Source: Siphlonurus alternatus (lineage: Eukaryota; Arthropoda; Insecta; Ephemeroptera; Siphlonuridae). Taken from it: DNA of 64,000 nucleotides. The stretch covers positions 26,750,118 to 26,814,117 of the forward strand of contig OX463780.1 of assembly GCA_949825025.1 (NCBI GenBank), in the 5' to 3' direction. The notes beneath the pieces were generated by a model, which worked only from the letters and a program-made list of their open reading frames with translations, was not told the origin of the DNA and searched no databases. The position numbers were made by a program, and so were the translations under genes. Below are positions 18,846-49,572 of the stretch, piece after piece (position 1 is the stretch's first letter; every line of letters begins with the position of its first letter).

Positions 18846-19015
18846 ACCAGGGGGTGGCTGCACCCCCCCCCCCCTTCCCCTCTGAAATTTTGGATTCAAC
18901 ATGGAACAAGGCCAAATAGGCATTTTCCCCCGAAGACTATATACTTGTATATAGTCCTTGATTTTCCCCACACCAATTTATTTTTAAACATTGCCCCTCC
19001 CCCCCCCTCCCTAAA
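18846..19015. mobile_element. decayed family C (hAT-type) copy
   Basis: Read against the minus strand of the copy at 51477-51655, this shares the order C-run, AAATTTTGGATT, AACATGG, GGCATTT, CCCC, CCAATTT, AAACATTG, but has lost the clear CAGGCGCGGATCC ends. It is interrupted by a 30-bp insertion at 18931-18960. Confidence 0.6.
18931..18960. mobile_element. 30-bp palindromic micro-insertion
   Basis: CGAAGACTATATAC, then TT, then GTATATAGTCCTTG form a short palindrome. It is flanked on both sides by the 9-mer ATTTTCCCC (18922-18930 and 18961-18969). The related repeat at 51477-51655 has a single ATTTCCCC at the same place, which shows the unoccupied site. The right end reads CAAGGACTATATAC outward, like the other micro-insertions in the window. 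Confidence 0.75.
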
Positions 19016-19121
19016 TAAAATAGGCTTTTACACCGAAATATTATAATAACTCTTAAAAAGCGTAACTATGTATATTAATTATATTATACTTGTATATATT
19101 ATAGTGCTAGTACGTCGACAA

Positions 19122-19352
19122 ATTGCCGGGATTCATGAAGGAGATAATATTATATACAATTATATATTATGTCCAGACGAAATATAGCCAATTAAATTTC
19201 TCATGATGGCACTAACCACGGCTAGTATTATTGATCGACGATTTTTGTAATAATTTTATTATATTAGGCTGAAACTAACCGTGGTTATAACAAAAAAAGC
19301 TTAATATTATCCCAATATTATGATTATCTCCTTCACGAATCACGCGCCCAAT
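19122..19352. mobile_element. GATTCAYGAA foldback element, copy 1
   Basis: The left end GGGATTCATGAAGGAGATAA pairs with the right end TTATCTCCTTCACGAATCAC. Internal ACCACGG and CCGTGGTT motifs also pair. It resembles elements at 29128 and 61583. Confidence 0.65.
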
Positions 19353-19359
19353 ATTATTT

Positions 19360-19441
19360 ACTATCGGAACCAAAAAGGTGTGCCCCTGAACAGCATAAAA
19401 CTCCCATAAGGAGAGGGGCACACCTTTTTGGTTCCGATAGT
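19360..19441. repeat. perfect 28-bp stem hairpin
   Basis: ACTATCGGAACCAAAAAGG continues through TGTGCCCCT. It is followed by a loop of about 25 bases and an exact complement. It lies directly after the foldback at 19122-19352. It may be a very young MITE or an siRNA-type hairpin. The perfect pairing argues against an ordinary animal microRNA precursor. Confidence 0.7.
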
Positions 19442-20461
19442 AGTTACGAGAGCAGTTTTTCACCTAACAAAAAACATGCAATTAAAAATAAATTCTATAA
19501 TATTATATAATATATGCAAATAAAATTAAACGATAGCAAAAATAATATCTGCTCATTAAAATATTTAAAAATAAAAATGACATCACCACATGAAATATAT
19601 CATGTATAGGAAACTACAAAAAAAAATCTTGATTTAATTCATTTAAATTTGTTTTGATTGAGATATCTTGTTGTTATTTTATTATTATTTTTTTTAACTT
19701 AACCTTACGTTAATAGTATTATTAAGAAATGTACTCAAACTCAACACATTGAAAAATTTCGTGAACTTTTGTGGGCGATATAAAAAGTAAAAAAGATCAA
19801 AGACGGTGCCGCCAAACAGTTTTATATGCAGCCGTGAAAGGGCTGACTGACTATACGATGTTTGTATCTGACCGCCCTCCTCCTCCTCCCTGTGACGCCG
19901 CCGCAAGACCAGCCACTTTTATTGTTGGGCCAATATTACTTCCCTGGCTCACCTTTATACCTTTGGAGAGCGTGCTCGGAACAATATGTCCCTGATGCTT
20001 CCGGCCGGTAACTCAAGCTATTGTCATTCGATTATATCGCCTCCGCGGATAACTAGCAAAAATTTCTTGTCCATTTTTTTTTATAACTTTAACGGTAAGT
20101 TGTCCTCTTTTCAATAAACAATTATTTCAGGTAAAAAATTAAAATTTATATTTTTAATATTTTTATCTGTTTAGTGTTGTATTTTGTGTGTGTATATGAT
20201 TTACTGTGATTTAATAAATATTTTAACTATTACCGAGTATTATACTATAGTGGGCAGTATGAAAATTCACCGTTATATATTTTTATTATTGAAGAAAATT
20301 TAAAGCTTCTTTTGGTTACTAGAAAAAATATAAAATTTAATAAGTGCATGTACAATTTATAATTTATAATATGGCATGCAACAGACCATACATTTTTGGT
20401 AAATAGTTATAGAAAGCTAAATTTGTACCTTGCACGTAAAAAAAATCATATAATTATAATA

Positions 20462-21281
20462 CAAGGTGTTTATAAAAATCGCTACAATTTGGCAGGCAAG
20501 TTAAAACATGATGTTTAATGTTTCAATACATCAAATTAAAGCTGAAAATTTATGAAAATTAAAAAGAGTTACTTGGACTTGTCTTCTTTTGAGACGAAAA
20601 GGAAAAAAAATGGGCGGTTTTCGAGCTCCAGAATCCGCAGAATCAGCAGTTACCTGCATGAAAGAAATTGTTTTTTTGCAACCCTCGATTGACTACATGT
20701 TTGGCTACACAATTTACCTCAAGCCTTCATCTCGTCATGAGCATCATCGTTTACCATGGCATTGGCGTGGTAAACAGCAATGGTAAACAGCTAGGAAGCA
20801 GCGAGCACAAGAAGTGTATCACCCAGGCACCGCTACGTACCATCAAGTCCGTCATACCGGCGATGCTGAACAACATGAGCTGGACGTGTGCCACAGTATC
20901 CACGGTACTCATGTGGAGATGAAGGCTTAATTGAGGTAAATTGTGTAGCCAATCTTGCAATTAATCGAGGGTTGAGTAAGTTGAATTGCAATAAAAACAA
21001 TTTCTTTCAAGTAACTGCTGATTCTGAGGATTCTGGAGCTCGAAAACGGTCCATGATTTTTTCCTTTTTGTCGCAAATGAAGACGAGTCCAAGTAACTCT
21101 TTTTAATTTTCAAAAATTTTCAAATTTCAGCTTTAATTTTATGTTATGAGTTATGACAATTAAGTCTATGTCCTCATCAAACATCATGCTTTAACCAAGG
21201 TGGGTAAAGGTAGACCTTTACCCACCTTGGCTTTAACTTGCCTGCCAAATCGTAGTGATTTTTATATATATAAACACCAGG
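20462..21281. mobile_element. mariner-like foldback element with broken transposase remnant
   Basis: The left end CAAGGTGTTTATAAAAATCG pairs with the right end, which finishes TATAAACACC. Both are bordered by TA, as in Tc1/mariner insertions. Arms of about 260 bases pair with many mismatches around a non-palindromic loop near 20740-20930. In the loop one frame reads IKSVIPAML and the next frame reads HELDVC and GTHVEMKA before a stop. That arrangement resembles the C-terminus of a Tc1/mariner-type transposase carrying a frameshift. A 34-bp micro-insertion sits in the right arm. Confidence 0.6.
21196..21229. mobile_element. 34-bp palindromic micro-insertion
   Basis: CAAGGTGGGTAAAGGT, then AG, then the exact complement. 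It is flanked by the perfect 8-mer GCTTTAAC (21188-21195 and 21230-21237). The opposite arm of the host foldback reads, on the complementary strand, CATCATGTTTTAACTTGCC without the insert. This is the unoccupied site. An 8-bp duplication is typical of hAT transposition. Confidence 0.85.
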
Positions 21282-21289
21282 TATATAAT

Positions 21290-47540: not shown

Positions 47541-47726
47541 TTAAGGGGGACATTCACAAAGCACTTTAACCCCCATTATAGCCCCGATTTTTAACCCTGG
47601 TGCTAAACATGGTACTAAACCAGGGGCTAACCATGTTAAGCTCATAGCTTAGCACCATGTTTAGCACCAGGGTTAAAATTCGGGGCTAAATTGGGGGTTA
47701 AAGTGCTTTGTGAATGTCCCCCTTAA
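47541..47726. mobile_element. TTAA-flanked foldback, 186 bp
   Basis: TTAA-GGGGGACATTCACAAAGC pairs with GCTTTGTGAATGTCCCCC-TTAA. The arms continue through CACTTTAACCCCC and ACCCTGGTGCTAAACATGG. The end motif ATTCACRAA resembles that of the GATTCAYGAA elements. Confidence 0.85.
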
Positions 47727-48326
47727 TTTTTAGTTATAATTTTACTCATGACGACGCGACTACAAAAATTGCAAACATTTCTTGTTTTGCTCTCTGCCGT
47801 AGTTCCCGCAGACACTTGAGAACTGAAGAGCACCACGTGAGGTAAACAAATACGCTACGCTAACAGGTAGTGACGGGCCCTTGAGCGCGTTCTGCTACTT
47901 GGGCAGCTCGTGATCTAGGAGCACACGCATGCGTTGTCAGCCGCGACACCGCGAGTAGAAGGACGGGCGATACCACGTCAAATATCGATATTATATACAT
48001 TGGATTAATAATGACAGTGTGAAAAATTTAAAGCCACGCCTTTTATATAGCTCTTTAAATAAATGGAAGAGGCATTTTTTAATGAGGATTCAGTGAAGAG
48101 TCACCCCTCCCCATTTTTTTTTTTTTTAAATTTGTATACAGATATAGTATCTTCTTCATTCATCTGATTCATCAGAAACAATTAAATTATTTCCATAGAT
48201 TCGTACGATTTTTTTTTCTGGATCGCATGCACCATCCATGCAAGCACCTTTTTCTTTAGTTGTTTGTAATTAAGTGTCCTTTGCTTTTTGATCGTCCCTG
48301 ATGAATAGTATATCATCATGTCATGC

Positions 48327-48374
48327 ATATATATATATATATATATATATATATATATATATATATATATATAA
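48327..48374. repeat. (TA)n microsatellite
   Basis: TA array of about 48 bases. Confidence 0.95.
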
Positions 48375-48499
48375 TATACGGAAAATTCATTTTATTATTA
48401 ATTCAAGTCTATCATTATAATTATATCATATAATATTTCCTGCATCTCTCTCTCAATTAATATGTACGTACAATATTCATAAAAAATATGGTACTAAAT

Positions 48500-48771
48500 T
48501 TCCAAAATACCAATGGTCCACCGCAAATATTTAATATTTGGCAAATATCGTTGTAACTAGACGATACTATCGTCCGTCCTGTCTATTCCCCCGCCGCGCC
48601 GCCGCTGTGAGTACTGCGAACGTTCAGTCGCTCAATGACGGTAGCTAGCGCAGTGGCAGCAGCAGTAGGCGAGAGCACCCAGTGAGCTAGGGGAGCCAGC
48701 CCTGAACGGGGACCATGGTCACTGAACCCTGCTGCTGCAGTGGCACCCTCGGCACCTCACCTTGCATACAG
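48500..48771 (+). other. candidate first exon with promoter
   Basis: A GC-rich block (CCCCGCCGCGCCGCCGC) in AT-rich DNA carries an arthropod initiator TCAGTC at 48624-48629. A frame starts ATG at 48715 (MVTEPCCCSGTLGTSPCIQ) and runs straight into a good donor, CAG|gtaaat, at 48772. It may be the first exon of the membrane-protein gene at 61820. If it joins 58103-58236 and 61815, this frame ends in TAA one base before the main ATG and would be an upstream frame. Confidence 0.45.
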
Positions 48772-49548
48772 GTAAATAAACTAATTAATTGAGTAACGAG
48801 ATTATCTTAATGAAACTATGTTTCTAAATATGTTGTCATAGTTTTCAAATTTGCGAGGTTTTGACAGCATGTGTCCGCAGTAAAAGGCGCCACAATTAGT
48901 CTCTTGTCAGAGGGGGTGGTGGCAGGAATCGATTTCAGTTTGCTTGCTGGCACGCGATTGCCGCACCACCGCCCACCGCACTCCGCAAACCACCCCAGTC
49001 AGCATGTCGTAAACACACAGAGGGAGGATATTTCACCCACTATCGACAATATCATTTATGAAACCAAAACAAAGAAAAGACAGTTTGACCACGAGCTTCG
49101 ATATTGACTTAATTATATTAACATTTATCTTGTTGATATAACCTATTGGAGCAGTACTATATAATATAAGTTTATATAGGTTACAAATTATTATCAAAGA
49201 ATAATTATATAACAAGCATTTTTTTTTTAGTTCTTCTGTTATATGATGTCACGAAAATTAGGATGACATCGTATCACGTATAATCGTAAAATTTTTAATT
49301 ATACTGAATGTAAGTAGTGAGCTCCATGCAAGCAGAGAAAGATAATTTTATAATTTTTTAATTAATTATTGTTACATCATTTTATAACCTCTCTCTCTCT
49401 TTCATGCTGTTTTTACTCCCTGTTTAATTAATATTTTTTTTAAACGTTGTTGTTTATATGACAGCCAGTGCACTAAAAATTTATACATTGTATATAAATA
49501 TGTATAACATATATTATACTGCATGTATATATTATATTTCAGTAAACG

Positions 49549-49572
49549 CAAGATCCCTTTAAAGGGATCTTG
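49549..49572. mobile_element. 24-bp perfect palindromic micro-insertion
   Basis: CAAGATCCCTTT followed directly by its exact complement, with no loop. Perfect 8-bp direct repeats AGTAAACG flank it (49541-49548 and 49573-49580). It is the smallest of the four micro-insertions seen. Confidence 0.8.

What the first reader, a model, noticed from the sequence alone, without database searches (positions are those of the whole stretch)
18931..49572. A set of micro-transposon insertions only 24 to 64 bp long
Four palindromes (24 bp at 49549, 30 bp at 18931, 34 bp at 21196, 64 bp at 32636) each begin CAAG or a near variant and end with the complement. Each sits between direct repeats of 8 bp (AGTAAACG, GCTTTAAC, AATCAACG) or 9 bp (ATTTTCCCC). 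An 8-bp duplication is the mark of hAT transposases. If mobilised as such, they are little more than two fused end sequences, far below the usual size of MITEs. The inner sequences differ, so they are not copies of one master. They might arise by aberrant end-joining of excised termini that are then reinserted. I know of no described class matching this.
Basis: partly seen in the sequence, partly recalled or inferred. Interest (0 to 1): 0.9.

Follow-up and report, generated by a model that had tools for sequence, protein, structure and literature searches.

The report
Scars left by departed P-type transposons
The tiny palindromes are most likely scars left where cut-and-paste DNA transposons of the P-element type jumped out, not miniature transposons that jumped in, and they record how the enzyme cut and how the cell joined the ends.

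Summary
The four palindromes and their flanking repeats are real and beyond chance, but are better read as excision footprints than as micro-insertions. Only the 34-bp one at 21196 was tested genome-wide. Its arm is the terminal inverted repeat of a DNA transposon family (copies of about 0.2-4.3 kb, 8-bp duplications). I read all 100 listed places of 376 arm matches (control 6): 53 distinct short sites, 49 cleanly parsed. These 49 keep 14-19 nt of one end and 0-19 nt of the other between the duplications; none keeps 20. Six keep one end only (three of them on a 7-bp repeat), 22 joins show microhomology, 16 carry filler. At one duplicated locus, one copy holds a 533-bp element and its paralogue holds exactly the window's 34-bp palindrome in the same duplication. 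A staggered cut deep inside the repeat is the mark of P transposase (17 nt in Drosophila). The genome has 29 P-type transposase matches; the four I could delimit, of 18 read, have 8-bp duplications and CAAAG ends. No P transposase with this family's own ends was found. The other three palindromes are assigned by analogy, because the genome search stayed busy; the 64-bp one fits least well.

The parts
18922..18930 (.). left copy of the duplication ATTTTCCCC (8 or 9 bp)
   Evidence: sequence; scan
18931..18960 (.). 30-bp palindrome; right end CAAGGACTATATAC resembles the P-element end CAAAGCCTATATAC of L089 (12 of 14 by eye)
   Evidence: no genome-wide test, tool busy
18961..18969 (.). right copy of ATTTTCCCC
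21188..21195 (.). left copy of the 8-bp duplication GCTTTAAC
21196..21229 (.). 34-bp excision footprint of family 1 (ends CAAGGTGGGTAAAGGTAGA...); the same join occurs at 7 independent sites including this one, two of them with a point change
21230..21237 (.). right copy of GCTTTAAC
32628..32635 (.). left copy of the 8-bp duplication AATCAACG
32636..32699 (.). 64-bp element, 22-bp arms (1 mismatch) and 20-bp centre; footprint with filler, or tiny internally deleted element
   Evidence: no genome-wide test, tool busy
32700..32707 (.). right copy of AATCAACG
49541..49548 (.). left copy of the 8-bp duplication AGTAAACG
49549..49572 (.). 24-bp perfect palindrome CAAGATCCCTTTAAAGGGATCTTG, probable footprint
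   Evidence: no genome-wide test, tool busy
49573..49580 (.). right copy of AGTAAACG
40606..40656 (.). possible fifth, weak: ATTATAA, 37-bp CATAG...CTATG near-palindrome, ATTATAA (7-bp repeat only)
   Evidence: AT-rich repeat, not tested further

Best explanation
The palindromes are excision footprints. A P-superfamily element sits between 8-bp target duplications. Its transposase cuts one strand at the element's end and the other about 17-19 nt inside the terminal inverted repeat, so each flank keeps a 3' overhang of that length from the element's end. When the break is repaired by end joining rather than by copying a sister, the two remnants are trimmed, joined through 0-2 nt of microhomology or a little filler, and copied. 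What stays is duplication + end + inverted end + duplication, mostly 22-40 bp. It looks palindromic because both ends are inverted repeats of each other, and differs between sites because different families left and because trimming varies. Shown here for the 34-bp site's family: that the arm is a transposon end, the footprint spectrum, and one filled/excised pair. Inferred: that the enzyme is a P-superfamily transposase, and that the other three palindromes arose the same way.
For: Arm CAAGGTGGGTAAAGGT: 192+184 genome matches, reversed-pattern control 3+3. All 100 listed places were read (and the window). 14 long copies show an exact 8-bp repeat at both ends (214, 520-548, 1217, 4298 bp). 53 distinct short sites; of 49 parsed, longer retained side 14-19 nt and never 20 or more; 6 one-sided, 32 asymmetric, 11 symmetric; 22 microhomology, 11 blunt, 16 filler; exact duplication in 39; 36 distinct strings. 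The 32-bp join (4 sites) and the 26-bp join (3 sites) can use a TA microhomology. L051/L052 pair: same duplication GTTACAGT, 533-bp element against the window's 34-bp palindrome, 100-base flanks 96 and 99 identical. P superfamily present: 29 PF21787 matches, all over cut-off, 0 of 14 control genomes; the L089 protein matches Drosophila P transposase 6p5a, E 5.8e-84, with P-element Pfam domains; delimited P elements L089, L094, L095, L096 have 8-bp duplications and ends CAAAGCC, CAAAGCT, CAAAGACT. Papers: P transposase makes a 17-nt stagger (passages).
Against: No P transposase gene was found between family-1 ends: the 4.3-kb copy L031 has no open frame of 120 aa or more, and of 18 P-transposase regions read (of 29 matches) only 4 could be delimited, none with family-1 ends. 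Retained lengths reach 18-19 nt, not exactly 17. The same 34-bp join recurs at 7 independent sites with at most 1 nt of microhomology, which copying of a tiny element would also give. Three of the six one-sided sites rest on a 7-bp repeat only, so some may be chance. In PMC10983969 (section read) Drosophila P transposase gave small, and zebrafish THAP9 larger, flanking deletions in cells, whereas most of these sites keep the duplication; my parse required it. The 64-bp window element keeps 22 nt on each side, more than any family-1 footprint parsed. About 230 kb of other sequence held no further CAAG palindrome with 8-9-bp repeats apart from family 1, so four in 64 kb is unusually dense. The sample favours sites with one intact 16-nt end. 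Footprints of the delimited P elements themselves could not be looked for.
Confidence: 0.86

Rival explanations
1. Micro-transposons: two fused ends of 24-64 bp that are themselves mobilised in trans and inserted with an 8-bp duplication.
For: Exact duplications; the 34-bp join at 7 independent sites, two of them with a point change, the 32-bp string at 4 and the 26-bp string at 3.
Against: 36 distinct strings among 49 sites, 6 with only one end and 32 more asymmetric; filled/excised pair L051/L052; the 32- and 26-bp joins coincide with a TA microhomology of the ends; two active sites on 24-34 bp of stiff DNA are hard to picture (inference).
Confidence: 0.05
2. hAT-type excision or insertion: 8-bp duplications and CAAGG fit the loose hAT end rule recalled from memory.
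For: 8-bp duplications; hAT-like elements with CAGGCGCGGATCC ends are in the window; the duplications' lean to T at place 2 and A at place 7 also fits the hAT rule as recalled.
Against: hAT cleavage as recalled makes hairpins on the flanks and should not leave 14-19 nt of element end; delimited CAAAG-ended elements encode P transposase. No search for hAT transposases was run, so this rival is argued against, not tested.
Confidence: 0.05
3. Extreme internal deletions made when gap repair after excision was interrupted (tiny MITEs), not direct end joining.
For: Intermediate copies of 214, 520-548 and 1217 bp exist; the 64-bp window element with 22-nt arms and a 20-bp centre would fit.
Against: Interrupted copying should leave a broad range of retained lengths; family 1 stops at 19 nt in 49 of 49 parsed short sites.
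Confidence: 0.04

Closest known systems
Excision footprints of the Drosophila P element
   Same: Remnants of both ends bounded by a long staggered cut inside the inverted repeat. The 17-nt stagger is stated in PMC7776569, PMC10983969 and PMC11368186 and repair by end joining in PMC7776569 (passages). That footprints hold up to about 17 nt of each end is recalled, not from a paper read here.
   Different: These are old genomic sites in another animal, from non-autonomous copies with CAAGG ends; retained length reaches 18-19 nt; many sites of one family. In the assays of PMC10983969 (section read) flanking deletions were seen; most sites here keep the duplication, though my parse required it.
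P-superfamily elements Pdre2 (zebrafish) and Galileo (Drosophila)
   Same: 7-8-bp duplications; short inverted ends starting CA in Pdre2 (CATACCTGTCAAC); THAP/P-type transposase (passages).
   Different: End sequences differ; no genomic footprint series was seen in the passages read.
MITEs made of little but inverted repeats (such as MADE1; recalled)
   Same: Near-palindromic, flanked by target duplications.
   Different: MITEs are multi-copy with one consensus; here the centres vary site by site and one-sided forms occur.

Membership tests
excision footprints of a cut-and-paste transposon | remnants are the ends of a longer element present elsewhere in the genome | tested here: met
   family 1 (34-bp site) only: long copies with the same ends, 14 of them with 8-bp repeats; the searches for the other three palindromes did not complete
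excision footprints of a cut-and-paste transposon | same site found filled and excised | tested here: met
   one pair, L051 (533 bp) and L052 (34 bp)
excision footprints of a cut-and-paste transposon | variable joins: microhomology, filler, one-sided remnants | tested here: met
   22 microhomology, 11 blunt, 16 filler of 49; 6 of the 49 one-sided
P superfamily | 8-bp target duplication | tested here: met
   14 family-1 long copies (L015 and L039 show none); four delimited P elements. Not exclusive to P
P superfamily | element encodes or is mobilised by a P-type (THAP/TNP-like) transposase | tested here: inconclusive
   P transposases are in the genome but none was found between family-1 ends in 18 of 29 regions read
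P superfamily | 17-nt staggered cut inside the inverted repeat | tested here: inconclusive
   longer retained ends pile up at 16-19 nt, mode 17, none at 20 or more of 49; no-filler parses of 53 sites are 25, 27, 35, 37, 38 for caps 16 to 20, which leans to 18-19
hAT superfamily | hAT transposase partner with CAAG ends | not tested
   no hAT family search of the genome was run
MITE / mobile micro-element | copies share one internal consensus | tested here: not met
   36 distinct strings among 49 short sites

The most novel reading that the evidence does not exclude
This animal's P-superfamily transposase cuts 18-19 nt inside the inverted repeat rather than 17, and its germline joins the two identical 3' overhangs by a preferred route that gives the same 34-bp product again and again (7 independent sites). 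Fossil footprints of many families would then be a genome-wide record of cleavage geometry and end-joining bias.
Probability: 0.35. Interest if true: 0.55.

Novelty: new member of a known kind. Interest (0 to 1): 0.45.

Why it matters
The long staggered cut of P transposase is known from Drosophila biochemistry. If genomic scars keep the two cut ends, the stagger and the repair outcome of P-type elements could be read in any sequenced animal without an assay. It also warns that short palindromes between 8-bp repeats should not be annotated as micro-transposons, and that such elements have left many more sites in this genome than their remaining copies show.

Tried and rejected
Considered and rejected or disfavoured: chance; hAT micro-insertions (argued, not tested by a hAT search); one master element for all four (arms differ); interrupted gap repair for family 1 (19-nt limit). 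Rfam at gathering scores gave two Sphinx matches on the window and ARAGORN no tRNA. The 200 bases around the 64-bp element matched nothing in the plasmid collection and the exact 34-bp palindrome nothing in the viral contigs; neither collection holds animal genomes, so this says little. The 4.3-kb family-1 copy L031 was hoped to be autonomous; it is not. Regions around 18 of the 29 P-transposase matches were read for ends (L087-L104; L084, L085 and L086 lie inside three of these); 4 could be delimited. Nine paper searches showed no account of a genomic series of P-type footprints in their listings; that covers only this open-licence library and those words.

Rows dropped: one search classed 56 short, 26 long and 18 unresolved site-ends from the 100 listed places and the window's own site; removing duplicates left 53 short; L001, L005, L044 (not cleanly parsed) and L046 (paralogue of L037) were then dropped, leaving 49. 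The unresolved ends include probable footprints with imperfect or lost duplications and ends of changed long copies. Of the long copies, L015 and L039 show no duplication.
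Full report
What is in the window. The four palindromes are where the finding puts them and are flanked by direct repeats as described, except that the 30-bp one at 18931 starts CGAAG and its duplication can be read as 8 or 9 bp. With exact 8-bp repeats, 14-100 bp spacing and arms of at least 9 bp with one mismatch, the window holds three cases, all starting CAAG, against a mean of 0.03 in 200 dinucleotide shuffles and 0.025 in 40 simulated windows for the indel-tolerant version at score 12. 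Elsewhere in the window the arms have only scattered partial matches. A weaker fifth candidate lies at 40613.

The genome. The window lies in a 455.7-Mb assembly, G000.

Family 1. The arm of the 34-bp palindrome, CAAGGTGGGTAAAGGT with up to one mismatch, matches 192 forward and 184 reverse places; the reversed pattern matches 3 and 3. The tool listed 100 places, all with no mismatch, and I read all 100 (and the window); the other 276 were not seen. Some are ends of long elements that continue AGAAGGTGGAATTACTT. Fourteen of these show an exact 8-bp repeat at both ends, with 214, 520-548, 1217 and 4298 bp between; L015 and L039 show none. The longest, L031, has no open frame of 120 aa or more and an inner array of repeats.

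The short sites. 53 distinct short sites remained after removing duplicates; 49 were parsed cleanly. The longer retained end is 14, 15, 16, 17, 18 or 19 nt in 2, 2, 10, 19, 7 and 9 sites; none keeps 20 or more, although the intact family end goes on. The lower bound is partly set by the 16-nt search word, the upper bound is not. Six sites keep one end only, three of them on a 7-bp repeat, where chance is not excluded; 32 are asymmetric and 11 symmetric. Joins overlap (microhomology) in 22, are blunt in 11 and hold filler in 16. 39 of 49 have an exact duplication. There are 36 distinct strings. The 32-bp (4 sites) and 26-bp (3 sites) forms are what overhangs carrying TA give when TA pairs with TA at the outer or the inner of its two places. 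The window's 34-bp form recurs at 7 independent sites, the window, L034, L037 (with paralogues L065 and L046), L038, L047, L052 and L053, two of them with a point change.

The filled/excised pair. L051 and L052 lie about 16 kb apart on contig 4 and are paralogous: of 100 bases on each side, duplication included, 96 and 99 agree. At the same duplication, GTTACAGT, L051 has a 533-bp family-1 element and L052 has the 34-bp palindrome, letter for letter the one in the window. L051's right end now has a small insertion, so its own ability to leave is not claimed. This is one pair only.

Which transposase. Drosophila P transposase cuts one strand at the element's end and the other 17 nt inside, leaving a 17-nt 3' extension (PMC10983969 and PMC7776569, passages; PMC11368186, passage). 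By complement, each flank keeps 17 nt of the end (my deduction). The genome has 29 matches to PF21787, TNP-like RNase H, all over the cut-off, and none of the tool's 14 control genomes has one. I read the regions of 18 of the 29. Four were delimited: L089, 4568 bp, GTGTAAAG, CAAAGCCTATATACTAAAG; L094, 5355 bp, GTCCAGCC, CAAAGCTTATATACTAA; L095 and L096, 5598 and 5589 bp, 99% identical at two sites with different duplications, CAAAGACTTCCCT. The L089 protein matches the P transposase structure 6p5a with E 5.8e-84 and carries P-element domains, as does L094. Fourteen further regions could not be delimited. So P elements with 8-bp duplications and CAAAG ends live here, but none with family-1 ends was found; the enzyme assignment is an inference. 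The end of the 30-bp window palindrome, CAAGGACTATATAC, agrees with CAAAGCCTATATAC at 12 of 14 places (by eye).

How long is the stagger. If remnants are capped at 16, 17, 18, 19 or 20 nt, 25, 27, 35, 37 and 38 of 53 sites need no filler. This fits 18-19 nt somewhat better than 17, but chance matches at positions 18 and 19 and the recurrent 34-bp join weigh on it, so I give 17-19. The duplications of the short sites lean to GTTATAAY, like GTATTAC of Galileo but also compatible with the hAT rule as recalled.

What does not fit. The 64-bp palindrome keeps 22 nt on each side with a 20-bp centre; it may be an internally deleted element or a footprint with filler. In PMC10983969 (section 6 read) excision in cells was followed by small flanking deletions with the Drosophila enzyme and larger ones with the zebrafish enzyme, while most sites here keep the duplication; my parse asked for it, and sites that lost it would sit among the unresolved. 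About 230 kb of other sequence held no further CAAG palindrome with 8-9-bp repeats outside family 1 (172,789 bases,000), so the window is unusually rich. The 24-, 30- and 64-bp arms were never searched because the tool stayed busy.

Verdict. Footprints of P elements are a known kind (recalled); a fossil series that records cut position and join choice in a non-model animal did not appear in the listings of the paper searches.

Noticed in passing
window 14935-15144 and 51469-51663: Two short elements with CAGGCGCGGATCCA-type ends and exact 8-bp duplications, hAT-like MITEs (family label recalled).
   Followed up: no
window 9532-9897 and 58884-59256: Two foldback-like elements of about 350 bp with long inverted repeats and 8-bp repeats CTTTAAAG and ATACGTAT.
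   Followed up: no
window 54672-55243 and 56482-57017: An 89-bp tandem repeat in two blocks; in the first the repeat runs both ways, with 119-bp inverted arms.
   Followed up: no
window 40606-40656: A 37-bp CATAG...CTATG near-palindrome between 7-bp ATTATAA repeats, possibly another footprint.
   Followed up: partly
window 35694-36110; 5413-5506 and 7215-7370: T-box exon and two Rfam Sphinx matches.
   Followed up: no
L031, about 3900-4450: Inner array of CAAGATCTTG-like units in the 4.3-kb family-1 element.
   Followed up: no
L037, L046, L065: One footprint carried in three paralogous copies; in one the inside differs, so footprints can be copied passively.
   Followed up: partly
L092 at 6093: A 284-bp element with CAAAGTCTT ends and TTCTTAAC repeats beside a P-transposase ORF.
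   Followed up: no
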